A DNA stretch of 13,535 nt from Pelagophyceae sp. CCMP2097 (taxonomy: Eukaryota; Sar; Pelagophyceae), in assembly GCA_026770575.1 (NCBI GenBank), contig MU657343.1, forward strand, positions 66,252 to 79,786. Direction: 5' to 3'. The notes beneath the pieces are model-generated. The model saw only the letters and a list, made by a program, of their open reading frames with translations, did no database searches and was not told the DNA's origin. This document shows positions 1 through 13,535 of this stretch, one piece after another (positions within the stretch are counted from its first letter, which is position 1; each line of letters begins with the position of its first letter). Position numbers and translations under genes: made by a program.

Positions 1-658
1 AAGTAGTCGGGGGCGGACTCCTCGACGGCCGAGAGGATGTCGCCGATCTTCATCGGCGTGACGAGCGGCACCGTCTGGAACGTCGTCTTCTCGTCGACGT
101 CCTCGGCAGGAACCTTTTCCCTGCCGCGCTGCGACGGGCCGTAGACGAGCACGTCCGTGAGGCTCTTGTCGCGCTCGTCGGCGGGGCAGAGGCCTTCGAT
201 GTTGGCCTTCCAGCCGCACTTCTTACACTTCTCGACAGCATCATCGAGGATGATGCCGCAGCAGAGCGGCATGTACGAGGAGGGGGCGCGCAGGTCCGCG
301 GGCGCTTCCGGGCAGACGAACTGCGGGATGAGGACTTTGCCGCACGGAAGCAAACCTTCCGAAAGACGCTGCCCCCTTTACCTGGCGTGAGCAAGCCGCA
401 GTACCCGAGGGTGCTTGGGTCGATGAACTTTACATTGCAGAAGTCGCAGGTGCAACCCTCGGGAAGGTATAACGCCGGGTCGTCCCATTTGGGATCTCCG
501 ACAAACGCGCTCAGGAACGCATCGGCCTCGTCGTCCATCGTAGACGCGGTAGACGCGGTAGACGCGACGACGAGCGCGAGCAACGTCGCGAACCGCGCCG
601 CCAGCGAGGCCCAACGAGAGGTCGCCGTAGAGATTAGCGCGTAGAAGCAATAATACAC
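1..658 (-). CDS. Secreted cysteine-rich host protein, 3' end beyond window; frame break or mini-intron near 335-381
   Basis: Minus-strand frame, GC-rich, not recognised as a known family. The first segment (658 to about 381) has a hydrophobic, signal-peptide-like stretch (ARFATLLALVVAS) followed by an acidic region and a cysteine cluster (CTCDFC, then YCG). From about 355 down to 1 the coherent frame changes and carries a second cluster (CCG...CKKCGW...LC) in an acidic, lysine-rich context, open to the window edge. Together the cysteines suggest a metal-binding or disulfide-rich secreted protein (inference). The frame change coincides with a good donor (CCAG then GTAAAG, minus strand at 381). 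Two AG acceptors restore the frame, giving introns of 26 nt (356-381) or 47 nt (335-381). No ATG opens the first segment; the frame begins at a GTG, so an upstream exon or a different start is likely. Confidence 0.5.
335..381 (-). other. Candidate short spliceosomal intron in the left host gene
   Basis: On the minus strand a GTAAAG donor lies at 381-376. AG acceptors at 357-356 and 336-335 give introns of 26 or 47 nt, and either one joins the upstream frame to the downstream cysteine-containing frame. The 47-nt version is the more usual size for protists. The alternative is a simple indel, in the genome or in the assembly. Confidence 0.35.
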
Positions 659-1400
659 AACGGCATTAAATTTTTAATAATGTTGACGTCTCTGAAGGCT
701 GATTTAATTTGGACTGGGACCTACATATGATTCGATGCTGTCGCTATCGACAAGATCACAAAGTCCCGGCCCGACGGACACCGTTTACAAAAGTCTCGGC
801 GCAATTCTTTCGCGCGCCGATAACTCCCCAGGCGCATCGGCACCGCGAATCGGTCGCACGATCGCGCCAACGAAGCGGTGCAGAATCCCTGACAGGCATC
901 GCGCTGGGATCAACCCGACGCGCACCACCGAGGCTCGACACCTCGGCGTATTTTGGACACCGGCACCCTTCAAGTCGGTGACCTTTCCATGTTCACCAGG
1001 TCCACCCCGGCAGCTACTGCCGACGCCCCTAGCGTCGGCAGCCCCATGCTCGGCGGGCCCACCCCGACAGTCCCGCCGCCGACACCCCCTGCGTCGGCAG
1101 CCTTTCCAAGCTGTGCGCCACCGACGCTCGACTCGCCGGCAACGAACACACGCAGGACGGTCCCCACCGACGTTCGACACGCCGTAGATCTCGTACACGC
1201 ACCGTAGGCGCTGGTCTACCGGCGCTCCACATCGTCGCTGCCGCGCGCAATTCCGGTGACGAGGCGCCCCAGCCGCCGCCGGCGTACCGGCCGTGGATGT
1301 CTGGGATGAATCGCGCCTCGCCACTCGCCGTCCTTGTGACGGTTCGGGTTTCCCAGTCCGGGTTTTCCAAGTTGCTTTTTCTGTAACCCGACGCATGATC
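659..1400. repeat. GC-rich degenerate repeat-bearing intergenic DNA
   Basis: No convincing gene. Frames are open on both strands only because stop codons are rare in GC-rich sequence, and the translations are low-complexity arginine, proline and alanine. Short variants of GCGTCGGCAG and CCGACGCC recur between about 1010 and 1110. The stretch 762-838 is similar to 2209-2283 (see that entry), so this is host repetitive DNA. Confidence 0.5.
762..838. repeat. Dispersed repeat, copy 1 (partner 2209-2283)
   Basis: It starts with GTCCCGGCCCGACGGACACCG and later contains GATAACTCCCCAGG followed by GCAT. The partner has the same order: GTCCCCGACGGGCACCG, then GATAACTCCCCGG, then GGGCAT. Spacing inside both copies is nearly the same, which argues for common ancestry rather than composition alone. 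Confidence 0.5.
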
Positions 1401-1830
1401 TATAGGTGGGCAAAGACAGTGTAGAGAATTATTGGCCCCTGGTTTTACTGTAACTACAGTGTAATTACTGTTACATACGTATTTACAGTGTAAAGAAGGT
1501 CATATTTTTAGAGGCGCTAAAACGAGGCGCAATGGGGCTTAGCGCGAGCGGGAGGCTCCGCCGAGTCGCCCCGGCGAACTGACGAGCTCAAATACGAGGT
1601 GTGGCTCTGCATGCGCATGTGTTTGCGGTAAAAGTCTAACTTTTGTTCAAACAAGTGGGGGAAAGTCACAATTTCGAGATGCAAGGCGCCCGAAATTCGC
1701 AAATATCGATGGATTGGAGATGTATTTTCAAGGGCACTACAGGCAAAATTTGGGGGTCGTGTAATTGCATGTAATAAAATGTAAAATCAAATACAATTTT
1801 TACAAATTATTTTACAGTGCCACCTATTGG
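1401..1830. other. AT-richer intergenic stretch with ACAGTG motif cluster
   Basis: No gene is supported. ACAGTGTA or close variants occur at 1416-1423, 1456-1463 and 1485-1492, and ACAGTG again at 1814-1819. The first and last copies are each followed closely by ATTGGC, so the interval could be a small mobile element or a spaced binding-site cluster. Base composition is lower in GC than both flanking blocks. Confidence 0.3.
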
Positions 1831-2400
1831 CGCATCAGCGAAGCCCTGTTGGCGGATTCGGACGCACCACGGGTTCGACCCCACGACGCGCACTGACGCT
1901 CGGCGCGTCAGCGACACCCCGATACACGACGCGTCGCTGGGTCTTAAACACACGCCGGGGTCGACCTCATGACGCGCATCGCACGCCAGAGTCAGCCCTT
2001 CGACGCGCACCGCCGACGTTCGATGCGTCGTCAGTGGCTTCCAGACACGCGCACTGACACGGCAGGGATTCCCCTTGACGTGCACTGCCCACGCTCACAC
2101 GACAGCGGACTTCTTGACACGCGCCAGAAACCCCAGCGCCAGAACATCATGACAGGCGCCGTCGATGCGAGTCCGATACGTGACTCGCGTCTATAGAACT
2201 GTGTAGAGTCCCCGACGGGCACCGACTTATCATCTCGCGCCATTTGATTTTCTCCACGTGCGAGATAACTCCCCGGTGGGCATAGTCTACGCGCCTCGCG
2301 CTAACAGATTTCCTCCATACGCCGGGGGTGACCCCCCCACAGTCGCAACCAACGCGAGTCTGACACGCGACTTGCGTCGATGGAGCTGCGCAGAGACTCC
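1831..2400. repeat. GC-rich degenerate repeat block
   Basis: Many variants of GACGCGCAC and TTCGAC occur between 1850 and 2040. A second internal duplication is clear: 2163-2216 resembles 2350-2402, both reading GCGAGTC, then a variant of GACTTGCGTC, then an AGAG.CTCCGAC-like end, with an offset of 187 bp. No reading frame here looks coding. Confidence 0.5.
2209..2283. repeat. Dispersed repeat, copy 2 (partner 762-838)
   Basis: Similar in order and spacing to 762-838, including the GATAACTCCCC core at 2263-2273. It shows that the two GC-rich intergenic blocks flanking 1400-1830 are members of one repeat family. Confidence 0.5.
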
Positions 2401-2425
2401 GACTAAAATAATATACATTTTTTTT

Positions 2426-2485
2426 ACCTTTTCAAATGCCAAACGCTTTCGGCTTCGCCTCATCACGTTTGGCATTTGAAAAGGT
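2426..2485. repeat. Perfect 20-bp inverted repeat with 20-nt loop
   Basis: Arm 2426-2445 is the exact reverse complement of arm 2466-2485 (ACCTTTTCAAATGCCAAACG and its complement). The spacer 2446-2465 itself contains GGCTTCGCC, a small hairpin. It sits where the GC-rich repeats give way to AT-rich DNA, so it may mark or lie near the left boundary of the inserted element. A transcription terminator or a MITE-like relic are other readings. Confidence 0.85.
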
Positions 2486-2611
2486 TTAAAATAGTGTCCG
2501 TCGACGTTCCCCCCAAAAAAATAAAAAGGATTAAATCTTTTTTTTATATAAATTTTAGAATAATACCCATCATATAAATCATGTCACAATAATAAAATAA
2601 TAAAATAATAT

Positions 2612-2926
2612 TTATTCATACCTGCACTCAACTCCATGAGGTGGTTTGATAGTTAAAAACTCTCTCATTGAATCATTTGGTTCGGTTATTTTATCCTTTA
2701 TAATATAATTATCTACTGAGTGCGAATCCAAATGATTTTTCTTGGTACATAATAGGATGTTTCGTTGTTTCTTTTGGAACATAGAACCGATGCTTATGGG
2801 GTCTGTATAGGTACTAAAATTGTATATAGGTGAACGAGTCTTCTCTTTGTCATCTAATGTATCTTTTAAGGCAAACCAAAGATTAGAACCAGGCGCATAA
2901 GCATATGTACCTGTTATGCCAATCAT
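2612..2926 (-). CDS. Unassigned 104-residue AT-rich ORF
   Basis: Minus strand, starting at an ATG (2926-2924) and ending at a stop at 2612. The product is polar, with no signal peptide, no transmembrane segment and a single cysteine pair far apart; I recognise no motif. Composition matches the viral block rather than the host edges. It ends 124 bases to the right of the perfect inverted repeat and starts 25 bases from the hairpin at 2951. It could be the 3' remnant of a larger viral gene cut by the SINE-like insertion to its right. Coding status is uncertain. Confidence 0.4.
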   Translation of the reverse strand: MIGITGTYAYAPGSNLWFALKDTLDDKEKTRSPIYNFSTYTDPISIGSMFQKKQRNILLCTKKNHLDSHSVDNYIIKDKITEPNDSMREFLTIKPPHGVECRYE

Positions 2927-2950
2927 TCTTTTTCGCCAGATAGTTTATTG

Positions 2951-3013
2951 AGGACCCGAAGGGTCCTTGCCGTTTATTCAACGTCAGTTTACGGCAAGGG
3001 CCCTTCGGGTCCT
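2951..3013. repeat. 23-bp hairpin, one mismatch, 17-nt loop
   Basis: Arm 2951-2973 pairs with 2991-3013 with a single T/C difference. The left arm is itself nearly palindromic (AGGACCC GAA GGGTCCT), so two alternative folds exist. The core CCTTCGGGTCCT returns at 3386-3397, suggesting a repeat family. It directly precedes the microsatellite and tRNA-like segment and may be the 5' part of the same non-autonomous element. Confidence 0.8.
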
Positions 3014-3040
3014 TTGATTGAAGGATTACCAGGGGCAATT

Positions 3041-3081
3041 ATGTCTGTCTGTCTGTTTGTCCGTCTGTCCGTCTGTCTGTC
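3041..3081. repeat. TCTG/TCCG tetranucleotide microsatellite
   Basis: About ten tandem units of TGTC, with TTTG and TCCG variants. The plus-strand reading (Ser-Val-Cys-Leu repeats) is a by-product of the repeat and not a gene. Confidence 0.9.
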
Positions 3082-3128
3082 GCCCAGCAAATCCGAGGTT
3101 CCACCTTGGGAAGAAAAAAACAGCAACT

Positions 3129-3262
3129 CGGCCGATTTAGCGATTGGTGGTTGATGCGATTGCTAAAATTGGGAGTTGAGGTCGAGCAGGAGCCTCATTG
3201 GAATCATCATAGAAGAAGTTTTTGGTCACAGGTTCGAATCTGGTCGGCCGCAAAAAAAAGAA
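3129..3262 (+). repeat. tRNA-like, SINE-like segment with A-rich tail
   Basis: At 3231-3241 GGTTCGAATCT matches the RNA polymerase III B box (GGTTCGANNCC) except for the last base. At 3138-3150 TAGCGATTGGTGG resembles an A box. CGGCCGA at 3129-3135 can pair with TCGGCCG at 3244-3250 as an acceptor-like stem. TAGC (3138-3141) can pair with GCTA (3162-3165), but the loop between them is about 20 nt, too long for a tRNA D-loop. The A-to-B distance is about 80 nt, and the T-stem has a mismatch. A run of A follows at once (3252 onward). A tRNA-derived SINE fits better than a working tRNA; an intron-bearing tRNA is less likely. Confidence 0.45.
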
Positions 3263-3480
3263 AAAATAAATAGCTCAATAAGAAATAAAATAATAAAAAT
3301 AAAGATAAGGAGGATTTGAAAGTTCAGCGATTAGTTAAATAATTTCAATTTTTATGTGGGCATTGCAATGGGATTTGGCTGTATCCTTCGGGTCCTCCGT
3401 GTGCCTCCGGCGCGCTCTTGTAATAACAGAACCAGCAAGACTGTGTCACGTTAAATAAAGTTTTTCTTCTTTTCCTAAAT
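3263..3480. other. AT-rich spacer with GC-rich fragment at 3386-3420
   Basis: No gene seen. An A-rich run follows the tRNA-like segment. At 3386-3397 the motif CCTTCGGGTCCT repeats the hairpin core at 3002-3013 and is followed by a short GC-rich piece (to about 3420) that stands out from its surroundings. It may be the remnant of a second copy of the same repeat. Confidence 0.35.
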
Positions 3481-3497
3481 AATTCTTCACTTTTTTT

Positions 3498-3716
3498 TTA
3501 CTCATCTTCCGCTTCGCTAAAACGAGGGTTCGAGGACTGAGTATTTGTAAGTATTGAACTGTCTACTATAATGTCTTGTAAGTTATAAGGATTAGTCCCT
3601 CGACATACGAGGAAATTATCACCTGTTAAATTATCTCGATATAACTCCGAATGCCTGTCGCTAAAACCTTCATTTTTTTGTAAAACCGTTAGGGTTGTAG
3701 TTTGTATAGATGCCAT
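3498..3716 (-). CDS. Unassigned 72-residue ORF, divergent from the GIY-YIG-like gene
   Basis: Begins with ATG at 3716-3714 and ends at 3498. The product is polar, threonine- and asparagine-rich, with an acidic C-terminus (EAEDE) and no transmembrane segment. I do not recognise it. It is transcribed away from the gene starting at 3797, with about 80 bases of very AT-rich DNA between the two starts. Such a divergent layout supports both being genuine viral genes, though this one could also be a truncated fragment. Confidence 0.45.
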   Translation of the reverse strand: MASIQTTTLTVLQKNEGFSDRHSELYRDNLTGDNFLVCRGTNPYNLQDIIVDSSILTNTQSSNPRFSEAEDE

Positions 3717-3796
3717 TTGAAAGTAGTGCGTCTTTTTCTCTTAATTCAGTATCAATTTATTTTATATATATTTATTTATTAAAAAAATACTTGTTA
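3717..3796. promoter_or_regulatory. AT-rich divergent promoter region with TATA-like stretch
   Basis: The spacer between two outward-facing ATGs carries TTTATATATATTT at about 3761-3773, roughly 25-35 bases before the preferred plus-strand start at 3797. No experimentally known viral promoter motif was recognised. Confidence 0.35.
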
Positions 3797-4252
3797 ATGA
3801 AGTACTACAAAAAAATTAACTCCGAAGAATCTTATGAAAATACAGATAAAAATCGCTTGGTTTCTTTATTTGCTATTACGATGGACAATGCTAAAACTGG
3901 AAAGAGAGTGCGGATTAAAATCGGAATGTCTTCTTTTTTAACGCAAAGGTTATACAGTTACTCTCTGCCTATGCCTGATGGCTTTTATATAATTGGGATA
4001 TTGCGGATAAAAATTAAATATAAACATAAATTACGTGAATTAGAGAAACGTTTACAGATAACATCACAAGGGATACACTACCGAAGTGCGGCAAGACTGA
4101 ACAGCCAAGAGTTGTTGATTACGACATCAAAAAATCTAACGGAAAAAAAATCAGAGTTGTACAATCAAAACCCAGAGTATTATTTAGAACCTCCTACTCG
4201 CCCAAAGGCAACCCGGTTGGTGGAGTTAAACTTGTGCCTTTTATATATTTAA
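3797..4252 (+). CDS. Possible GIY-YIG / T5orf172-like protein
   Basis: An upstream in-frame ATG at 3710 would add a hydrophobic, phase-shadow-like extension over the promoter spacer, so I prefer the ATG at 3797 (MKYYKK). The product is about 151 residues. Residues about 21-45 read LVSLFAITMDN...KIGMS followed by a QRLYSYS segment, then PDGFYIIGIL and a LRELEKRL helix. The order (hydrophobic strand, KIG-small, RL, strand, E-containing helix) recalls the T5orf172/MUG113-type GIY-YIG nuclease fold, which occurs in PLVs and large DNA viruses. Near residue 95 HYRSAARLNSQELL could be the SEW-like end of that domain. The canonical GIY and YIG words are not obvious, so function is tentative. The last 30 residues may be a frame-shifted tail, because another frame there looks equally coding. 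Confidence 0.4.
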   Translation: MKYYKKINSEESYENTDKNRLVSLFAITMDNAKTGKRVRIKIGMSSFLTQRLYSYSLPMPDGFYIIGILRIKIKYKHKLRELEKRLQITSQGIHYRSAARLNSQELLITTSKNLTEKKSELYNQNPEYYLEPPTRPKATRLVELNLCLLYI

Positions 4253-4269
4253 AAATGTTATGATATTAT

Positions 4270-4567
4270 ATGTTTAGTGAATATAAATCATCTTATATCA
4301 TTAAAGAGACTTCGAATATAGAAGATGTTTATATTACAGATAATACCCTTGTGGTTAAATCAAATCTATCGCCTGTTAAATTTTATGATATACCGCAACC
4401 TGATGAATACATTAAAAGGTTGAATTCGAGAATAAAGACTTGCTTTTTATAGATAATTAAAATAAAGAAATAAATGTTAAAATATCTACTACAAACATCA
4501 TAGATATTTCTCAACTTGGAGACAATCTGGTTATACTCAAACAAGACTTGAGTATATAAAACGTTAA
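4270..4567 (+). pseudogene. Probable N-terminal part of the fibre gene, broken
   Basis: An ATG at 4270 opens a 60-codon frame to 4452 (polar, with VYITDN and VKSNLSPVKFYDI). Beyond its stop, a different frame from about 4471 reads INVKISTTNIIDISQLGDN and ends at 4560, only eight bases before the open collagen-like frame. Short polar N-terminal regions with heptad-like spacing before a collagen stalk are common in viral fibres. I infer these pieces are the virion-anchoring N-terminus of the downstream fibre, split by at least two frame changes. They could instead be a separate small gene. Confidence 0.4.
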
Positions 4568-4999
4568 TTTGAGGAATTTAAAGGAGACCCCGGCGCTCGT
4601 GGAGAGAAGGGGGATAGTATTATAGGCGCTCGTGGAGAGAAGGGCGATAGCATTGTAGGTGCTCGTGGAGAAAAAGGGGATAGTATTGTAGGCGCTCGTG
4701 GAGAGAAGGGTGATAGTATTGTAAGTGCTCGTGGAGAGAAGGGTGATAGTATTGTGGGTGCTCGTGGAGAGAAAGGGAATCGCGGCAGCAGGGGTAGTAC
4801 TGGCGAGAAAGGGAAAAGCGGCAGTAGGGGTAGCACTGGCGAGAAACGGAATAGCGGCAGCACAGGTTCAATTGGTCCTATCGGTCCTATCGGTCCTATC
4901 GGAATCCCAGGGCTTTCAATTAGCGGTGTAGACGGTAAGGATGCCACTCCAAACAGCGCGGAAAGCCCTTTATCTATTGATTCAAATGAATTTGATTAA
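4568..4999 (+). pseudogene. Collagen-like stalk of a viral fibre protein
   Basis: Open frame without an ATG: the preceding in-frame TAA is at 4565-4567, and the only internal start-like codon is a GTG at 4754. After FKGDP come six 33-bp units, each coding GARGEKGDSIV, at 4592-4789; the fifth starts with Ser instead of Gly. Then follow GSRGSTGEKG-type triplets and a GPIGPIGPIG run (to about 4905), then a non-repetitive acidic tail ending at 4999. Gly-X-Y repeats form trimeric stalks in fibres of phages, giant viruses and their relatives. The missing start and the stop before the head region mean the gene is broken at both ends of this segment. Head-like sequence resumes in another frame right after the stop. 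Confidence 0.8.
4592..4789 (+). repeat. Six tandem 33-bp collagen-like units
   Basis: Unit starts at 4592, 4625, 4658, 4691, 4724 and 4757. Each codes three Gly-X-Y triplets (GAR GEK GDS) plus two extra residues (Ile-Val or Ile-Ile), so the collagen phase is broken regularly every 11 residues. The final unit diverges into GEKGNRGSR. Confidence 0.9.
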
Positions 5000-5836
5000 A
5001 GTTTGACGATACTCTGCTTTTAAATAACTCGAATCTTTCTGTGCGTCCATATGAGACTCCATATCAAAAACTTATTAGACTGAAACCACCTCATATGTAA
5101 TTTTCTGCCGGCACCTATTTGAATGATGATAACTTTTTAAAAAAATAGTGTTTTTTCTGGGATTGATGCCGTGATAACAGGGGATTTAATTAGAACATCA
5201 TCGCCTGGACTGAAAAGTGGCTTAATACCCGTACTTGAAGGTTACGCGCAAAATTCAGTTATTTATTTTACGGTCATGCCTGAACAATTCACTATATTTT
5301 CAATAACGAGATATACATCAAATGATGCGGACAAGAGGAAAAGGATTCTCACAGGAGAAACGAGCGCTGTGGATTAAAGTGTTGCACATAATAATGATGG
5401 AAAAGGATATGTTTCCTGTAGTTCCAGACGTTATACCCCTTTACAATCAGGCGACATATTAGAATTAACAAATATTGCATGTACCAAATACCCAGAAATG
5501 GAAAGCCCCGATAATATAATATTAAACAATAAAAGTATAGCAATTAATAAAATACCACGTTTAAAGAATTCGAGAAGATTGTGTATAAATGGGATGCAAA
5601 AAGACCAAGAGCCAAAAATTATTTTTAAGTTTAAATCTGATTTCCATTTTTCTAAATTGTTGGTTTTCGATGTCGCTCTAATTGTGGAAGAAATGCAAAT
5701 CGTCTCGGGTGGTTTCCAGGAATATATTGAAACAGGAAACTTTGATATGTTCACTGAAAATTATACATCAGGAAACGAAAATAAATTAATCGATTCAAGG
5801 ACTCGAAAAATATCATCAAAAACACGATATACTCCG
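5000..5836 (+). pseudogene. Fibre head module, copy A (frame-broken)
   Basis: Coding-like sequence spread over several frames. Landmarks, in order: PYETPYQKLIRLKPPHM then a stop then FSAGTYLNDDNF (5047-5133); an ITGDLIRTSS...PEQFTIFSITRYTSND segment (5171-5377); ESPDNIILNNKS (5501-5536); and VALIVEEMQIVSGGFQEYIETGNFD (5674-5748) followed by a YTSG motif. The same landmarks in the same order recur in 6090-6790 (copy B), which shows this is a duplicated domain. The stop at 5097-5099 is TAA where copy B has TCA. There is no database-recognisable enzyme motif; by position after a collagen stalk I infer a receptor-binding or spacer domain of the fibre. Confidence 0.6.
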
Positions 5837-6075
5837 CAGGACCGAATATTAATAGATCTGCTGACAACGTGATAAGTTCCACATCGCCCGATGCGACCTA
5901 TTCAGCCGGTTCGAATATTAATATTTATGCTGACAACGTGATAAGTTCCACCTCACCCGATGCGACCTATTCCGCCGGTTTGAATATAAATATATCTGCT
6001 GACAACGTGATAAGTGCATCCTCAATAAATAATGCGTATACAGCAGGGAATAGCATCAACATATCAGAAACAAAT
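5837..6075 (+). repeat. Tandem 69-bp repeats coding Y-x-A-G-x-N-I-x-I motif
   Basis: The shared GCTGACAACGTGATAAG starts at 5860, 5929 and 5998: a period of exactly 69 bp, or 23 residues. Each unit reads Y-[ST]-A-G-x-x-[IS]-N-I, four or so residues, then NVIS; the first two full units are nearly identical in DNA. A further copy lies just before 5860 (YSAGPNIN), in frame with the array but not with the preceding head-module frame, so a frameshift lies near 5815. Periodic Y-x-A-G / I-x-I patterns are typical of repetitive beta-structured fibre shafts (inference). Confidence 0.8.
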
Positions 6076-6803
6076 GTAATCAACTTCAATGGTTTTGAAA
6101 CAAAATTAAGCCAAATACTTCGAGAACATCCACCCTATATGTCATATTCTGCCGGCACCTATGTAGATGGTGATAATTTTTTTGAAATAAATGGTGGGTT
6201 TTCTGGAAAACCATAAGCGGAACTATCAGGTACTCCATTAATAAAAAACAATCTTCAAGTATATGTGTAGTGTCTGGACAATCAAAATCTGTTATTGTCT
6301 TTGGGTTCTACCGAGCAACTTCCATATTTTCGCGATAACGAAATATGCATCAGAAGATGGAGAATGTGGACGAACTTTTTCGACTGATATGAACATGATT
6401 ATAGGACATCATAACCATACATCCCGTGCAGTATATCTGGACGGCTTGCTTACACAAAGATTCAATGAAGAAAACTACGCCGGTTTTAATAATATTTCGT
6501 TAACAAATTTAAACCATATTACAGAACCAGATAATGTTATAATAAACAATGAATCCATTGGACTGTCCGCATCGTCTTCCTTATCGAACTCTTTACTATT
6601 TATAAACCGAAGGGGGAATGAGGCAAGTAGTTTGAATTTTCAAAATTATTGGTTTTTGACCAACCATTAATATTGGCTGAAGTGAAGATTATAACAGGGG
6701 TATTGGAGAATTACATTCAAACAGGTATTTTTGATAATATGGATTATACGGCGGGGGGAAATATTCAGATAGATATACAAGACAAATAACAGCAAAAGGA
6801 TAT
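6076..6803 (+). pseudogene. Fibre head module, copy B (frame-broken)
   Basis: It continues the frame of the repeat array with FETKLSQILREHPPYMSYSA and GTYVDGDNFF, ending at a TAA at 6214-6216. Frames then change: FHIFAITKYASED lies at 6319-6357, ITEPDNVIINNESIG at 6518-6562, and an AEVKIITGVLENYIQTGIFD-like segment at 6676-6735 in a further frame, followed by DYTAGGNIQI. Order and content parallel copy A, offset by about 1040 bp. At least three frame changes prevent expression as one protein. Confidence 0.6.
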
Positions 6804-7010
6804 AATGCCGGTCAAAACATTTTAATTTCCGATACAAATGTTATCAGTGCAACAAATACTGATAATAAATATTTGGGAGGGACAAACATTTCAATTTCTG
6901 ATACAAATGTTATCAGTAGTGTGTATGACAAATATACAATGGGAGCAAATTTTGATATATCTGCTGCCAATATTATCAGTGCGTGGCGGTATATCGCAGG
7001 TGACGGCATG
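6804..7010 (+). repeat. Second Y-x-[AG]-G fibre repeat array
   Basis: Three tandem units of about 22-23 residues: YNAGQNILIS...NVIS, YLGGTNISIS...NVIS and YTMGANFDIS...NIIS, ending in YIAGDGM. SDTNVIS is repeated almost exactly in the first two. The array occupies the same position after copy B as 5837-6075 does after copy A, so shaft and head were duplicated as a pair. Confidence 0.75.
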
Positions 7011-7758
7011 CGGCTTTCAAATTTCGTTTTTTATCTAACAAATATACCATACACAATAGATGAGGTTAACATGCTGCTCACGAGCAAACGGTTGACATTA
7101 ATAGCAACCGTCGATAATATATTAACTTCTATTATCCAGGCAGGTAATCTCATCGAAGCAGTTTGTTATGGATTCGGACAAATAAAGATTAGTACGAAGG
7201 ATTTTTATAGTAAGAATGGAGTGAAGGCGTTGTTCTATCAACTCATTAAACCCGGGAAGGTCATCAATCTTCTGGTTGACAGGGGTGTGTCTTAATTACC
7301 CTCGATAATAGTGTGCCATTCATAGTTGCTACTGGAAGAGTCGATGGAAATACAGGTAATTAATCATCCTATGGGTGTTATACACAAAGAAAATGCGAAA
7401 GGAACATTCATCATTCGTTATTTCCCTTACAGGCGTCCAGATTTGCCTCATATAATAACTGCGACGGTTCATTCTGAACGCTTTACACAGGTTATTTATG
7501 TAGATGAAACTTCCGACTTGTGAGATAGTTTTAATCTGGGAAGCGGGGTGTTCGGGTTTTGTATACGTGTTAACAGGACAAATAAGAGTATGACTGACTC
7601 AAACATTTCCTTAACTGTTGTCGAAAAAATTAAAGAATAATTTTTATAATTATGTTCCCTTTTTCGAGGCAAACGGTATTATTGACCAACTTGGGGATTT
7701 TATTACAACAAGTGCGAATGATGTAAACAATAAATTCATTTTTTCAAAAGAAAACTGA
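7011..7758 (+). pseudogene. C-terminal module of the fibre locus
   Basis: It continues in frame from the second repeat array to a TAA at 7293-7295 (about 95 codons: NVMLL-type strand-rich sequence, ...KPGKVINLLVDRGVS). A second open piece at 7326-7523 (EIQVINHPMGVIHKENAKGT...FTQVIYVDETSDL) and a third from about 7528 to 7640 (SGVFGFCIRVNR...ISLTVVEKIKE) lie in changed frames. A last piece ends KFIFSKEN with TGA at 7756-7758. The content is unlike head copies A and B, so this is probably the terminal receptor-contacting domain; its fold is not recognised. Two or more breaks make it non-functional as it stands. Confidence 0.5.
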
Positions 7759-7798
7759 ATTTTAACATAAAGTTTAAATTATTCTGTGTCGGAATTGT

Positions 7799-7999
7799 TT
7801 AAATCGTCCACTTTAAGAATTTGGTTGATGAGTCTTCATGAATAGGGATGTTATCAAATTCGATACAACCAACCTCACAATGTGATATTCTTGTAAGCAG
7901 ACAAGTTTGAAGTGTGCGGAAATAAACGATACACAATATGCCCAAAACAGAAATGATCAAAAACGTGTTTTCGGTGGGGTTGTCAAATTTGGGAATCAT
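7799..7999 (-). CDS. Small single-pass membrane protein, 66 residues
   Basis: The frame is open from 8092, but the extra 31 residues are low-complexity AT-rich translation, so I choose the ATG at 7999-7997 (MIPKFDNP). About ten polar residues are followed by one hydrophobic span (FLIISVLGILCIVYF, residues about 13-27) and a polar C-terminal region with two cysteines and acidic residues. Small single-span proteins of this kind are frequent in PLVs and virophages, where some are virion membrane or entry-related components; no specific family is recognised. It is convergent with the fibre locus, 40 bases from its end, and intact as read. Confidence 0.5.
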   Translation of the reverse strand: MIPKFDNPTENTFLIISVLGILCIVYFRTLQTCLLTRISHCEVGCIEFDNIPIHEDSSTKFLKWTI

Positions 8000-8440
8000 T
8001 TTAAAAATGTAATATGAAATATGTACGAAGTTTTTTAAATGAACATGCGAGAAAGAAAGAAAAATTAAATATTTTTTTAAATAAAGGTTCATTCAAGATA
8101 CTGGACTCGTATCTCTCAAAGAGGCTGATATGAATAGATGGACAATATCGAATTATAAGAGGAATAAGCAAATGAACAAACCTATTTCATACTTCTTATA
8201 TTTCTGATAAACTTTTTAAATATATTATGTCAACAATTGTAAATATCATTTATAAAGCAAAGATTCTATACGAAATGTGACAGATAAAACTTTGTTTTTT
8301 AATTATCCGAGACTATTATAAACCTACATAACAAACGTGCTTTATAGAGGTTTCAGGTTTTCAGTTTATAAACCTGATAATAAATTTAACAAACAAAATA
8401 CGTTATAATAACCAAAAATAAGAATGGGGATGTGCGAAAT
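8000..8440. other. AT-rich spacer before the capsid genes
   Basis: No gene supported on either strand. The sequence is highly AT-rich with frequent stops. It lies between a minus-strand start (7999) and a plus-strand start (8441), so it must hold divergent promoter sequence if both genes were functional. The motif AAACCT occurs at 8182, 8321 and 8370. Confidence 0.35.
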
Positions 8441-9033
8441 ATGGAGGTAATTGACGGCTTTTATACATCAAGCGATATTTTGGAATGTTTAAAAAGTACT
8501 CTTAAAAAAACAAGACTTCGGTTAATCGTTCGAAACAAAAAAAATTTACTGTTGTATCTGAGAACGTTTTTCATTTATCCGAATCATTTATAGATTATAA
8601 AATTATGAAACAGATAGCTGAATTAATCGAATCATTAGTTTCGAAAAGTGTGGTTGATTTTTATAAATTTCAGTTAAATATACATGAAGTATGTGTTGAT
8701 ATGAAAAATAGTATTATTTCAACGAACAATGATACTTTATTCATGGGCTCAAAAATTTCAAAAATTTCAGTAAAATGCGTTCTTGGGTAGTTTATAATAA
8801 ACGGAAACGTTAGCAATTTTCACAAAAAATTATGCGATTGTATTCTTTACTCTTTTAAGATTCGCATATTAAACGACAACGATATAGATGTTTTTAATGA
8901 TGTGACTTGGATTATGACAGTTAAATTAATTATAAACTCAGATGAATCTGCACCATCAGATCTCGGCGTAGTATACAATAACAATACAGCAGGCAATCAA
9001 AACAACCCCATTGTCAATAACCAGGTTATTTAA
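8441..9033 (+). pseudogene. Probable minor capsid (penton) protein, frame-broken
   Basis: An ATG at 8441 opens with MEVIDGFYTSSDILECLKST. The G-[FY]-Y-x-S then helix pattern near the N-terminus is what I know from penton/minor capsid proteins of polinton-class viruses. After about 33 codons the coding frame shifts: a sequence with FTVVSENVFHLSESF begins near 8547 and stays open through 8787. There it meets a single in-frame TAG (8788-8790) inside a VLG-stop-FIINGN context, then continues in the same frame to TAA at 9031-9033. Total about 197 codons, short for the family. Its position immediately before the MCP candidate is the usual order in PLVs and virophages. One frameshift and one stop inactivate it. 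A different structural protein is the alternative. Confidence 0.5.
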
Positions 9034-9128
9034 TTGAAGACAGCACGCGATCTTTATGTAAATCTCTAAATTATATTCAAAAAGAAATTTAATATAATTA
9101 TAGTTTTACTGAAGGAGAATTGAAACGC

Positions 9129-9973
9129 ATGAAACAAGGTCATTCCAACTACTGGAAGTTCTTTCAAAGGAGGTGGAACTTGTCGAATCAAATTGCCATC
9201 AAATAAGATCGCCAGTTACGTAAATCTCGCATCCAGTTTCTTCTCAAGAGACGTAAAATCATCTGTCAAATAAGATCGCCAGTTACGTAAATCTCGCATC
9301 CAGTTTCTTCTCAAGAGACGTAAAATCATCTGCCGATGTTAAGATGTCAAGTCTTGGTTGTAGTTTTTTTTTCTGCCGTTGCCCTGCGCAATCAAGGTTC
9401 AAAATTGTCGCAAATCATGAACTATCCTGTTTATCGAAGTTTACATCATAAAAATGAACAGGTTTCGAAAGAATACATGAGTGGAGATGGGAACATTTGT
9501 CTCGGGATGAAAGATGCCGCTGATGGGCGGAGTCTTACCGGGGGAAAAACTATTCTTTCACCGAGCCACTTGCCAATTTGGTAAGTTCTTTATTCGCAAA
9601 CGGGACATATATACCCCTCTTTTTCTCAGATTCTTCGGGAATAGACCTCGTGTCTGGTGTAAACAGTTTCAGTTTTTCCTATATTAAGGCGGATACGGAA
9701 GCGGGGAAAAGTGCAGCCGCAACCATGCAATCGACTCAAGATGGTGATGATAATGGGTAAATATTTTCAAACAATTTCCTTTACCTCGCGATTGTCGAGT
9801 GTGCCCCCGAGGTTGATAGACAATTTATCTCCACTCATGACGGTATATTCAAATATCTGGCTGTAAACACAACATCATTCGTTAGCAAAATCCCAGCCGG
9901 TACACAGACGCATATATATAACCTTGGTGCGAGTAAGTCCTCAGTCAATTCAATTAATATAGTGTTAACTTAA
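9129..9973 (+). pseudogene. Probable double jelly-roll major capsid protein, disrupted
   Basis: Coding pieces follow each other in changing frames from about 9129 to TAA at 9971-9973 (about 280 codons; family members are usually 450-600, so parts are lost). The N-terminal piece (9139-9270) has GSSFKGGGTCRIKLP and a following SYVNLASSFF, matching the first-strand region of polinton/PLV capsid proteins. Next, 9336-9584 has ALRNQGSKLSQIMNY, comparable to the 'GS-x-LE-x-I-x-x-Y' element of that family. The last piece (9762-9970) reads FLYLAIVECAPEV...FKYLAVNTTSF...IPAGT and ends in a K-SSVNSINIVLT strand, like the C-terminal jelly roll with IPAG. A 67-bp tandem duplication (9199-9332) and a T8 run near 9362-9369 coincide with frame changes. 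Family assignment is by motif order and neighbours. Confidence 0.55.
9199..9332. repeat. Exact 67-bp tandem duplication inside the MCP candidate
   Basis: 9199-9265 and 9266-9332 are identical base for base. 67 is not a multiple of 3, so the duplication shifts the reading frame and creates a TAA in the first frame just after the junction. The lack of any difference implies a recent event or an assembly artefact. Confidence 0.95.
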
Positions 9974-10450
9974 CAATTCCCAAGATACGACCACCAGTTC
10001 CAAACCTTTATAAAAAAATAAACTTATAAAATGAACTGTATTTATTGAAGGAACACCGATAATGATAACGAATCGCCTCAAATCATCTAAGTAATTTAAG
10101 TATTTACAGTAGCGATACACTGAATGAGTATGAATCTCGTTCATTTTAATATCACTGGATATGGAATCAATGATAGGGAAGTGCGAGTCATTGCATTCGG
10201 GGATTGACATTTCATCATGAACCTCATCAATCGAACTCGAATTTTCAGACCCAACCACAGAAATTTTGACGATAACCTCGTTTGTAAATTTCGATGCATT
10301 AATCTCTTTGGACCTTACAACTACAAGAACCTTTGAACTTTCTGATAAGAAAATAAATAATATTTTATGTGTTAAATAAAAATTCTGTAAATCATTTTTA
10401 ATAATAGATCTCACAGTAAAATAATCGGATTTCAAATTTAAATAGTTTTA
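9965..10450 (-). pseudogene. Unassigned minus-strand ORF, about 156 codons, no ATG
   Basis: Open from just after a TAA near 10450 down to a stop at 9965, convergent with and overlapping the end of the MCP candidate by nine bases. No ATG opens it; the first start-like codon is TTG at 10435, and internal methionines lie far downstream. The product is rich in serine, isoleucine and acidic residues, with short hydrophobic patches (HKILFIFLS; VIIIGVPS) but no clear transmembrane or enzymatic motif. I do not recognise it. It may be a truncated viral gene, or chance open sequence opposite a degraded plus-strand region, though I see no good plus-strand candidate there. Confidence 0.35.
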
Positions 10451-10558
10451 AAGAGCAAATAAAACTCTCACAGGTGTTCTTCTGGTATAATAAAGGTTAT
10501 ACTCAGCCATTCAAAAAAAGAATACTCAAAATAATAATAATAAAATAAAGTTAACTTT

Positions 10559-10702
10559 ATGGAGACTAACGAGATAATAAATAATACGTTACAGTTGGAA
10601 GTTGTTAAGCAATGCGTAGATAATGAATTTAAATACTATGATAAAAAACGAACACCCACAAACACGCCGACTGGATTGATTAAAAAAGTTTTTTTAATAT
10701 AA
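10559..10702 (+). CDS. Small 47-residue ORF upstream of the ATPase
   Basis: ATG at 10559-10561, TAA at 10700-10702, five bases before the ATPase ATG. The product is hydrophilic (METNEIINNTLQLEVVKQCV start, a KYYDKKRTP segment, a short hydrophobic end) with no known motif. Very close spacing to the next start and an AT-rich leader with ATAATAATAATAAAATAAAG upstream suggest a small viral gene. A 5'-truncated remnant of a longer protein is the alternative. Confidence 0.4.
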   Translation: METNEIINNTLQLEVVKQCVDNEFKYYDKKRTPTNTPTGLIKKVFLI

Positions 10703-10707
10703 AAATA

Positions 10708-11273
10708 ATGTCTGCGTCTTCACCGGTTAATGTGGAAGCGGAAAGACAACCCTTGCACAAAGTATGGTATCGAGTATTAAGCATAGAGTGTACGCCGGAG
10801 TTTTCGACCATATTGAAGTGTGTTGTCCCCCAAGTACGTTGAGTTTATTGGGGTGAAAACAACCCCTTTAAAGAATAAGATCCTTCCCAAAAATAAGATA
10901 CTTTTGATGAATGGTTTTTGGATGAAGCTTATGAATTGCTATTAACAACAAGTCCTGAAAGAAAGGATATTTTAATCTTCAATGATGATGCCGGCAATAG
11001 TTTTAAAAAAAAGCTCTCGAATAAATTTAGCAATATTATCATGAAACACCGTCAGTTAAAAATTAGTATCTTGCTTTTGTGCCAAGATAAATTGCAGTTG
11101 CCTCTCCCAAGTAGAATAAATAAATTAAACGACCAGAAAGAACAGATTATAACGGAACATCAACTGATAATACGTTTTTACAAAATGAAGCATGGCTGGA
11201 AAGAAATCGGGAGCTGGCTGCTGAGAAGAAAGAAAAGAAAAATAATCATCATCAAGTCAATAATAAATATTAA
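10708..11273 (+). pseudogene. Genome-packaging ATPase (A32 / FtsK-HerA type), frame-broken
   Basis: P-loop ATPase that in this class of viruses pumps the genome into the capsid. The ATG at 10708 is in frame 1. The Walker A motif CGSGKTTLAQ (10731-10760) lies in frame 0, open 10731-10853. Frame 1 then resumes with FDEWFLDEAYELLL, Walker B ILIFNDDAG (10969-10995) and KHRQLKISILLLCQD...LP...RIN (11044-11121), which matches the A32-type H-R...IS...Q...P..R.N signature. The C-terminal coding sequence moves back to frame 0 (NEAWLERNRELAAEKK) and stops at 11271-11273. Two TAA codons (10870s and 10890s) also interrupt frame 1. About 188 codons in all, short for the family. The motif set makes this the firmest viral call in the window. 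Confidence 0.8.
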
Positions 11274-11285
11274 ATTAAATTTTAT

Positions 11286-11541
11286 TCAAACGAATTTAAA
11301 CAAAGTTTCTCTATCATCTAACTCCTCTTCTGACTCATCAGATGACTCTTTAATTTTCGAACTTTTCGAACTTTGGGGGCTGTTTGAGCTGTTTGGGCTT
11401 TTTGGGCTCTTTGGTTGTTTTGTGTTGTTGGCTCTTCTTCTTTCCTCGATTCAATCGCCATCTCAATGATTCGGTTAATCTCAGTGAGTTTTTCCTCATC
11501 TTTAATCGTTTAATTATTATCTTTTTTTCCTTATAACGCAT
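11286..11541 (-). pseudogene. Small basic protein with Ser-Pro linker and acidic tail, frame-broken
   Basis: ATG at 11541-11539, six bases downstream (in its own direction) of the stop of the next minus-strand gene, so the two were probably co-transcribed. The first codons are very basic (MRYKEKK). A second frame reads EEKLTEINRIIEMAIESRKE, a likely amphipathic helix. A third frame reads KSPKSPNSSNSPQSSKSSK, then SSDESEEELDD, and stops at 11286-11288. The same DNA read on the plus strand gives the Leu/Phe/Gly-rich tail of a long plus-strand frame, which I take as a shadow. Function unknown. Confidence 0.4.
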
Positions 11542-11546
11542 TTTAT

Positions 11547-11767
11547 TTAATTCTCCCAGTTTTTATCCGCCACAATCTGCTTTAAAGTTCTTTTTAATTT
11601 GGTTTTAATCAAATCCCCTTCTTCTATACATGGAGAATATGTTCCATACTTTATGTATTTCTTTTATTTTCTTCAACAAGTTCAACATTTTCTTCAAAAA
11701 AATCCACATTCTTTTTCGAAGGACGTCCACTTTTTGGTTTATTTACACAAAACGGTGCTTTCTCCAT
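11547..11767 (-). pseudogene. Small protein with AT-hook-like GRP motif, one frameshift
   Basis: Preferred ATG at 11767-11765 (MEKAPFCV); the longer upstream frame to 11866 is low-complexity. Residues 11-19 read KPKSGRPSK, the GRP core flanked by basic residues seen in AT-hooks. An acidic helix follows (VDFFEENVELVEEN). Around 11655-11665 the frame changes, and the continuation KYGTYSPCIEEGDLIKTKLK...QIVADKNWEN stops at 11547-11549. Without the single break it would be about 73 residues. A DNA-binding role is inferred from the GRP motif only. Confidence 0.45.
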
Positions 11768-12010
11768 ATAATATAATATATATTTAATATAAAAAAGGAA
11801 TTGTGGATGTTCGGAAAACCAAAGTAAGTCGAGATTCATCATCACCGCAGATGTATTTGATTTCAATTATAATAAAGGAAGGTTTCCTTTTTCGAAGACC
11901 ACATCATCGGACTTATTTCAAATAATGGCCGTGAAAAGGTTATAGGAAGTCCTTGCCCCTATTGGATTCGGGATTGTCGGAAGGTCCCCTATTGAATTCA
12001 CGAATTTTTC
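11768..12010. other. Right transition zone from AT-rich viral DNA to host DNA
   Basis: No gene is supported on the plus strand. On the minus strand a short stretch (about 12020-11920) reads EKFVNSIGDLPTIPNPIGAR, which may be a fragment of an unidentified gene. CCCCTATTGGATTC (11956-11969) and CCCCTATTGAATTC (11987-12000) form a short direct repeat 31 bp apart. TGAAAAGGTT (11931-11940) also occurs at the left margin (2476-2485), a possible but weak boundary signal. Confidence 0.35.
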
Positions 12011-12352: not shown

Positions 12353-13535
12353 TCAGTTAAGCGTGGTGTAGACGCCCCCGTCGTCGTCGCTCATGTCCTG
12401 CTCCCCCTCGCTCATCAGCTCGTCGTCGTCCTCCTGGGCGAGCACTGGAAGCATGGCCTTGTGCTGGGCCAGCAAGACGCCTTCGTTGAAAGCGCCGGCC
12501 GCCCAGGCGGCGATGCCGGTGGGCTTGGTGGTGTTGCTCCATGGCACCGGCACGGCCACGCCGCGCCACTCCAGCAGAGCCTTGACCTTCGGGAGGGTTA
12601 GGGCCGCGATGTCGTAGCCTTTCTCAATCAAGTCGCCGAGCGCGGCGCACAAGTCGATGGCCTTCTTGTCGCCGCGCGCGGTGGCCTTCTTGGCGCGCTT
12701 CGACGCCTTCTCTGCGAGCTCCGCGGCTTCGGCCTGCTCTTGTGCGTACAGCTCCGCCATGATCAGTGTCGCGTCTCCGCCGAGCGACGTGTTGGGGCAG
12801 CCGCGCTTCGCACGCTTACGTCTTCCCGCCGTAGAGGCGGCGCGCAGCTGCTGGCCGGACTCCTCCAGCGGCCGGCGAATGACTTCGAATACGACTTTGC
12901 GCACCACCAAGGCCCGCGACGCGGGGACGAGCGCGACCAAGTGATCGCCAATCTCGACGGTGCGCGGCGTGACGAGCGCGGCCCGGAGGACCTCGAGCTG
13001 CGCCTCCGAGATGTTCATCGAAGCCGCGAGCACTCGCTGCTCTCCGAGCACGCGAGCCTCGGCCTCGCGCCGGAGGTCGCTCTCCAGCGCCTCGCGGACT
13101 TGATTCTCGGCGCGTTTGTGGCAGCGGCGAGCCATCTTCGCCGAGTCGAGCGCCGCGTCGCGCAAGGCCTCGGCCGCCCCCTTGACGACGAAGCGCGTGC
13201 CGACGCCGGCGAGCACAGCCGCGAGCGGCAGCGCCGCGAGCTTGTACGCCGCGTCGTCGTAGAGGAGCGTGAACGTCTCCCCGCGTCGTACCATCGTCGC
13301 GCGCAAGGCGCCGGCGCGCTGGTCGGCGGCGGTGAGGTCCGTGCAGTCTCCGTCGGCCAGCGTCGGCGTGGCGTCGGTGACGTTGAACGAGGCCCCTGTC
13401 GGCGCCGACTCCAGTTTGCCGCGCGCCAGCGTGTCGAGCAGCCTCGCGGACTCCGAGTCGCCGGCGCCGCCTCGGCGCGTCGGCGGCGCGCACTTGAACG
13501 CGGCGGCCTCCTGCTCGTTGATTGAGCTCGGCTCC
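12353..13535 (-). CDS. Host protein of unknown function with possible SAP-like motif, 5' end beyond window
   Basis: A single uninterrupted frame runs from the right edge (13534) to TGA at 12355-12353, about 393 codons. The first in-frame ATG is at 13294-13292, but the frame stays open and protein-like to the window edge (EPSSINEQEAAAFKCAPP), so the true start lies outside. The middle is alanine-, arginine- and glutamate-rich and probably helical or coiled-coil (AENQVREALESDLRREAEAR). A basic cluster RRKRAKR could be a nuclear signal. Near the end, LTLPKVKALLEWRGV then KPTGIAAWAA resembles a SAP-type helix-turn-helix. The C-terminus is strongly acidic (EDDDELMSEGEQDMSDDD). A nuclear DNA-associated protein is a reasonable guess and no more. 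Clean frame and high GC mark it as host rather than viral. Confidence 0.65.
   Translation of the reverse strand, partial: EPSSINEQEAAAFKCAPPTRRGGAGDSESARLLDTLARGKLESAPTGASFNVTDATPTLADGDCTDLTAADQRAGALRATMVRRGETFTLLYDDAAYKLAALPLAAVLAGVGTRFVVKGAAEALRDAALDSAKMARRCHKRAENQVREALESDLRREAEARVLGEQRVLAASMNISEAQLEVLRAALVTPRTVEIGDHLVALVPASRALVVRKVVFEVIRRPLEESGQQLRAASTAGRRKRAKRGCPNTSLGGDATLIMAELYAQEQAEAAELAEKASKRAKKATARGDKKAIDLCAALGDLIEKGYDIAALTLPKVKALLEWRGVAVPVPWSNTTKPTGIAAWAAGAFNEGVLLAQHKAMLPVLAQEDDDELMSEGEQDMSDDDGGVYTTLN

What the first reader, a model, noticed from the sequence alone, without database searches (positions are those of the whole stretch)
3498..11767. Decayed endogenous polinton-like / virophage-like virus in a GC-rich eukaryotic genome
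The AT-rich block carries, on one strand and in consecutive order, a fibre, a candidate penton, a candidate double jelly-roll MCP and an A32-type packaging ATPase, flanked by small viral-type ORFs. GC-rich host-type genes lie on both sides. Walker A, Walker B and the A32 H-R/Q/R-N motif are directly visible; the capsid calls rest on motif order and context.
Basis: partly seen in the sequence, partly recalled or inferred. Interest (0 to 1): 0.8.

Follow-up and report, generated by a model that had tools for sequence, protein, structure and literature searches.

The report
Broken algal virus with hairpin ends
This stretch is the broken remains of a small DNA virus stuck in the genome of an alga, one of dozens of copies of a little-known virus group whose ends carry a hairpin-forming sequence and in which no known integration enzyme was found.

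Summary

Unexpected: the capsid search found two relatives among 5.8 billion proteins. The window's left edge and 22 other ends share an A-rich tip beside an inverted repeat, often with a conserved loop. No rve or tyrosine integrase was found on their contigs. Such PLV termini were not described in the papers searched. Loop inversion is weakly supported.

The parts
1..2404 (.). GC-rich left flank (host)
   Evidence: GC 0.592
2405..2510 (+). Left terminus of the element: A-rich tip, then a palindrome with arms 2420-2445 and 2466-2491 and a 20-nt loop
   Evidence: palindrome score 20 against a maximum of 14 in 40 Markov sequences; sister copies of the tip elsewhere in the genome
2615..2943 (-). 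One half of a lipase-like gene
   Evidence: 63% identical to L041:106-300 over 65 aa; weak, below-cut-off Lipase_3 and alpha/beta hydrolase matches in relatives
2944..3426 (.). Dispersed host repeat inserted in the lipase-like gene
   Evidence: Window copy plus 39 other near-full-length copies at 95-98% (40 scored of 1277 candidates); the relative C223 has 42 bp where the window has 519 bp
3486..3771 (-). Other half of the lipase-like gene, in two frames and with stops
   Evidence: 55% and 47% identical to L041:361-660
3710..4249 (+). T5orf172 (GIY-YIG-like) nuclease gene, open over 180 aa
   Evidence: Pfam T5orf172 E 0.0076, below its cut-off; 79% identical to L041 over 96 aa; pN/pS 0.17
4264..4449 (+). 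Small conserved ORF
   Evidence: 56% identical to L041:1168-1344
4568..4996 (+). Collagen-like fibre segment with 33-nt repeats
   Evidence: Pfam Collagen 1.1e-10; repeat family D1
4996..6786 (+). Fibre modules in several frames
   Evidence: Matches to L009:3459-4508 and L011
6738..7775 (+). Distal fibre region, broken
   Evidence: 48% over 281 residues of L017:9051-9899 (window 6969-7775), E 7e-71, 8 stops
7802..8092 (-). Small conserved ORF with a hydrophobic stretch
   Evidence: 64-70% identical to L009, L016 and L017 over 46-56 aa
8288..9090 (+). Penton (minor capsid) candidate, broken
   Evidence: 47% to L017:7639-8610, E 6e-60, two overlapping frames, stops
9133..10343 (+). Major capsid protein gene (double jelly roll), broken; residues 1-24 not matched
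   Evidence: Three HSPs in three frames to L009:7570-8844; fold of the relative
9199..9332 (+). Perfect 67-bp tandem duplication inside the capsid gene
   Evidence: Repeat family D5
10550..11286 (+). A32-type packaging ATPase gene, broken
   Evidence: Two HSPs in two frames, 4 stops; relative: Pox_A32 6.3e-7, Zot 4.8e-9
11380..11767 (-). Charged-protein gene fragment
   Evidence: 37% and 30% to L012:896-1363 in two frames, 8 stops
11941..11975 (.). End of another host repeat, where viral similarity stops
   Evidence: 28/28 identity to two places in L059, 91% over 35 to L016
11976..13535 (.). GC-rich right flank (host)
   Evidence: GC 0.697; 393-aa open frame 12353-13534 without Pfam match

Best explanation
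The block is the remains of an integrated polinton-like virus in an alga's genome, from a lineage with many copies there. Shown: gene order, capsid fold of an intact relative, ATPase family, copy number, the broken genes, the host repeat inside the virus, and the palindromic terminus. Inferred: the ancestor was a linear DNA virus of about 15.7 kb, replicated by its own protein-primed PolB, packaged by the A32-type ATPase into a double jelly-roll capsid with collagen-like fibres, with a lipase that helped entry. It was inserted with its end at the A-rich tip. It then lost function through stops, frame changes, a tandem duplication, a repeat insertion and loss of the right-hand half. This copy can no longer make its own capsid or copy itself.
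Against: No sequence match of the capsid, penton candidate or PolB to a named PLV protein was obtained, though no PLV reference set was at hand. The first capsid model, from 5 rows, was poor (pLDDT 41.8); the good one needed the within-genome relatives. The capsid's best structural matches are giant-virus capsids. The penton candidate has no meaningful profile or PDB match. The flanks beyond the window are withheld, so insertion could not be checked by an empty site.
Confidence: 0.93

Rival explanations
1. The element is intact and its apparent decay is an assembly artefact.
For: PMC10120064 section 7 (read) reports that error correction removed the stops seen in a protist PLV.
Against: In the same assembly 5 full-length capsid matches have no stop. 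The window combines stops, frame changes, a 67-bp duplication, a 483-bp host repeat inside a gene and four absent genes. Over the longer alignments it is only 63-65% identical in DNA to the relatives held, and 71% to the best other place in the genome, so collapse of near-identical copies is unlikely.
Confidence: 0.05
2. It is a true polinton or virophage rather than a PLV.
For: PolB of the DNA_pol_B_2 family in relatives; Sputnik and mavirus capsids match structurally.
Against: No rve integrase on any contig with a capsid or PolB match. The capsid profile finds no PDB sequence, those of Sputnik and mavirus being among the solved ones. No search aimed at a cysteine protease was run.
Confidence: 0.1
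3. It is a fragment of an endogenous giant virus (Nucleocytoviricota).
For: Best fold matches are PBCV-1, SGIV, faustovirus and ASFV capsids.
Against: The sister C571 measures about 15.7 kb tip to tip, and the polymerase of relatives is of the DNA_pol_B_2 family.
Confidence: 0.03

Closest known systems
Polinton-like viruses (PgVV, TVS, Gossevirus and other groups; PMC4642659 and PMC10120064, passages)
   Same: Double jelly-roll capsid, A32-type ATPase, PolB or helicase replication module, lipase, GIY-YIG, TIRs, about 15 kb, many copies in an algal genome
   Different: The capsid search found only two relatives among 5.8 billion proteins; A-rich tips with an inverted repeat; no integrase found
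Endogenous PLVs of cryptophytes (PMC12220804, passages and section 10)
   Same: Divergent PLV groups in one algal genome, TIRs
   Different: There rve or YREC is carried by half or more of the members of clusters C1 to C4; the words palindrome and hairpin have 0 occurrences in its main text
Oxyrrhis marina PLVs (PMC12721341, passages)
   Same: Endogenous PLVs with ongoing pseudogenisation in a protist
   Different: Helicase-pPolB fusion there; here a 1138-aa PolB ORF and, in other copies, SF1- or D5-like helicase ORFs
Polintons / Mavericks
   Same: PolB of the protein-primed family, TIRs
   Different: No rve integrase found on the element contigs

Membership tests
Polinton-like virus | Double jelly-roll major capsid protein | tested here: met
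   Model of the intact relative L009:7570-8844; window gene 54-80% identical in pieces
Polinton-like virus | PgVV-like capsid sequence (criterion in PMC4642659, passage) | tested here: inconclusive
   No sequence match to a named PLV; Tetraselmis viridis virus S1 appears in the fold searches at 18-19% identity
Polinton-like virus | A32/FtsK-type packaging ATPase | tested here: met
   Relative above the Pfam cut-offs for Pox_A32 and Zot; window piece alone only E 0.019, below cut-off
Polinton-like virus | Penton / minor capsid protein | tested here: inconclusive
   Conserved gene in the expected place; no PHROGs match, one PDB row at E 0.76; not modelled
Polinton-like virus | Protein-primed PolB or helicase replication module | tested here: met
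   In relatives only: DNA_pol_B_2 2.9e-43; DUF5906 2.2e-6 above cut-off, D5_N and SF1 helicase matches below cut-off. No PolB match in the window
Polinton-like virus | Terminal inverted repeats | tested here: met
   In relatives: C571 carries the tip at both ends; fibre-side end of C223 matches PolB ends. The window has one tip only
Polinton (Maverick) | rve integrase | tested here: not met
   11 rve matches in the genome, none on capsid or PolB contigs; withheld stretches could not be searched
Virophage (Maveriviricetes) | Virophage-type capsid and cysteine protease | tested here: inconclusive
   Sputnik and mavirus capsids match in fold but no sequence match; cysteine protease not specifically searched

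The most novel reading that the evidence does not exclude
A PLV lineage whose linear genome ends in an A-run plus a hairpin-forming palindrome with a conserved loop, and which enters host chromosomes at those ends without an rve or tyrosine integrase: a terminal structure and insertion route not described for PLVs in the papers searched.
Probability: 0.35. Interest if true: 0.72.

Novelty: new variant of a known kind. Interest (0 to 1): 0.5.

Why it matters
It ties an orphan capsid lineage, with two relatives found among 5.8 billion proteins and none in the IMG/VR scans made, to an algal host in which it has inserted many times. If the ends and the missing integrase hold up, it raises a testable question: how small protein-primed viruses enter chromosomes without a dedicated integrase, and whether terminal hairpins take part in replication, packaging or insertion.

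Tried and rejected
Host identity: the own-genome search for 18S rRNA (RF01960) did not complete. A recalled 18S 3'-end pattern gave 0 matches.

Covalently closed, flip-flop hairpin telomeres: considered and downgraded. In a word test of 15 type-1 or diverged tips, 7 read alpha, 3 beta and 5 were undecided. One alpha call (C442, score 11) does not exceed the maximum of its shuffled control (12). All 3 beta tips (C186, C223, C568) have a truncated inner arm; some alpha tips (C224, C308) are damaged too. Of 9 type-2 tips, the window's among them, 8 are alpha and 1 undecided. A real flip-flop telomere should show both forms in intact tips, so beta may be later rearrangement.

Target-site duplication: none seen by eye in C571, the one element with both tips clearly in hand, nor between the two C177 tips, whose pairing is uncertain.

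ATPase phylogeny: not done, no reference PLV set at hand. IMG/VR: capsid, ATPase (40), PolB (87), P0001 (120) and family-C capsid (121) gave no relative; alignment A3 was too diverse for the scan. Tip patterns, exact, gave 0 matches. PolB against PDB sequences gave no meaningful match.

Full report
What the window is. The window is G000:C179:66252-79786 of a 66.2 Mb, 638-contig genome. It is a photosynthetic eukaryote by 60 matches to the chlorophyll a/b-binding family. The species could not be named. The AT-rich block (GC 0.34) sits between GC-rich flanks (0.59 and 0.70).

The gene row is real. Open pieces of the window were compared with loci around other ATPase and capsid copies. They match in order and orientation: lipase-like gene (2615-3771, minus), T5orf172 nuclease (3710-4249), collagen-like fibre and fibre modules (4568-7775), a small minus-strand ORF (7802-8092), penton candidate (8288-9090), capsid (9133-10343), ATPase (10550-11286) and a charged-protein fragment (minus strand, 11380-11767). 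In relatives two small genes lie between penton candidate and capsid, and PolB and a GIY-YIG gene lie beyond the ATPase. Five queries for these (133 aa, 139 aa, two PolB, one GIY-YIG) have no match in the window.

Other proteins. The relative's ATPase scores Zot 4.8e-9 and Pox_A32 6.3e-7, both above cut-off; the window piece alone reaches only E 0.019. PolB of C114 matches DNA_pol_B_2 at 2.9e-43. By eye it has a Cys/His pair like a vOTU domain and a DTD motif; that is my reading, prompted by PMC11071308 (passages). Other copies carry different replication genes: C452 below-cut-off SF1 helicase matches with GIY-YIG, C286 a D5-like ATPase. The penton candidate has conserved columns but no PHROGs match and only one PDB row at E 0.76, so it stays a candidate.

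Copy number. The capsid query finds 109 matches on 59 contigs, the window's C179 included (lower bounds). Five full-length matches have no stop (C186, the query itself, and C223, C454, C114, C402). There are at least three families: A (window-like), B (38-43% to A) and C (21-25%) in alignment A3. PolB gives 71 matches on 39 contigs. C186 and C421 are 91-95% identical in DNA, while the window is 63-65% identical to its relatives over the longer alignments and 71% to the best other place, C446.

How the window copy is broken (unless stated). The capsid lies in three HSPs in three frames, with 11 stops, 4 of them in well-aligned context. The ATPase has two frames and 4 stops, all in context. The penton candidate has two overlapping HSPs in two frames, with 6 stops (3 in context) and 7 (1 in context). 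The distal fibre has 8 stops, 1 in context. A perfect 67-bp tandem duplication lies in the capsid gene. A 483-bp repeat (2944-3426), with 39 other near-full-length copies at 95-98% among the 40 scored of 1277 candidates, splits the lipase-like gene; where the window has 519 bp the relative C223 has 42 bp. Another repeat end begins at about 11941, where viral similarity stops. The capsid still shows past constraint (pN 0.268 against pS 0.79, saturated), so most of its divergence probably predates decay. The T5orf172 gene is still open over its whole match and has the lowest pN/pS (0.17 against 0.34-0.46 for four other pieces). PMC10120064 (section 7) warns that stops in such elements can be assembly errors. 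The inserted repeat, the duplication, the missing genes and the clean copies elsewhere make that unlikely here, but reads were not available.

The ends. At about 2405 the GC-rich flank meets an A-rich stretch and a palindrome with 26-nt arms and a 20-nt loop. Its score of 20 exceeds the maximum of 14 in 40 Markov sequences of the same length. The tip recurs elsewhere in the genome (32 matches over 19 candidates, the window included). Eight of those places were fetched; seven show an A-rich tip, the loop and an inverted repeat, damaged in part in C177's right tip, and one (C11, only 81 bases fetched) departs within the loop. Tips of the C421 type or its diverged forms were read at C421, C186, C114, C207, C442, C224, C223, C571 (both ends), C308, C242, C198, C568, C349 and C180. 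All 15 begin with an A-run of 4-10 followed by TATAG, and by eye an inverted repeat, complete or part-deleted, follows. Most were picked for similarity to the C421 tip, so this is not a random sample of ends. Against it: the PolB side of C419 was read and showed no tip, and that of C349 is mostly withheld and showed none. The tip stands at both ends of C571, about 15.7 kb apart, and at the fibre-side end of C223, which shows terminal inverted repeats. In a scan for palindromes over the loci then held, 4 of the 11 found (two of the 11 are one place in two overlapping loci) lay at a sharp GC change, all four element ends.

What the ends may do. Two readings: protein-capped ends in which the A-run lets PolB start and slide back (recalled mechanism), with the palindrome as origin or packaging signal; or covalently closed hairpins. 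The first fits the polymerase family better. Inversion of the loop, the sign of hairpin telomeres, was seen in 3 of 10 decidable tips of the first set (15 tested), all three damaged, and in 0 of 8 decidable type-2 tips (9 tested), so I do not lean on it.

Integration. PF00665 (rve) has 11 matches in the genome, none on a contig with a capsid or PolB match. PF00589 (tyrosine recombinase) has none, while all 14 control genomes rang. The readable ORFs of two copies, C223 for the fibre half and C421 for the PolB half, viewed side by side and not joined, leave no unexplained ORF that I would call integrase-sized. But parts are withheld, and a divergent recombinase could be missed: PMC4642659 found its OLV11-type only by iterated search (passage). 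In cryptophyte PLVs rve or YREC is carried by half or more of the members of clusters C1 to C4 (PMC12220804 section 10), and PMC10120064 says most protist elements encode integrases (abstract passage).

Novelty. Endogenous PLVs in algae are well known. Unusual here are the orphan capsid lineage, the palindromic tips and the missing integrase. Literature searches (listings) and term searches inside PMC12220804, PMC12721341 and PMC10675990 showed no description of palindromic or hairpin PLV termini. The ten papers that hold both 'polinton-like virus' and 'hairpin' and the eight with 'palindrom' were seen as listings only, except PMC11071308, where hairpin occurs once, in a reference title. The library holds open-licence papers only. 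PMC7805220 was seen only in a listing.

Noticed in passing
window 3710-4249: The T5orf172-like nuclease gene is still open over its whole match in this dead copy and has the lowest pN/pS (0.17); it might be retained for a reason.
   Followed up: partly
L014:1264-3932; L018:123-2147; L012:2059-5472: Copies with related capsids carry different replication genes (SF1 helicase-like with GIY-YIG, D5-like ATPase, or PolB), suggesting module exchange within one host.
   Followed up: partly
L009:6110-7009: In C186 the penton ORF runs directly into the basic-protein ORF, apparently through a deletion.
   Followed up: no
L060, C224 from about 42,930: A tip of one element is followed by sequence resembling the start of another element's PolB, then by the dispersed repeat: possible nested or adjacent insertions.
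   Followed up: no
L068 (C349:29746-30033): A small element with inverted ends (TAGGAAGTTCCTGCCCC) sits inside the terminal palindrome; a similar repeat end marks the right edge of viral DNA in the window.
   Followed up: partly
L027 to L036 (family C): A third capsid family (about 450 aa, several open copies) with its own penton-like and ATPase-like genes; no relative found in the one IMG/VR scan made.
   Followed up: partly
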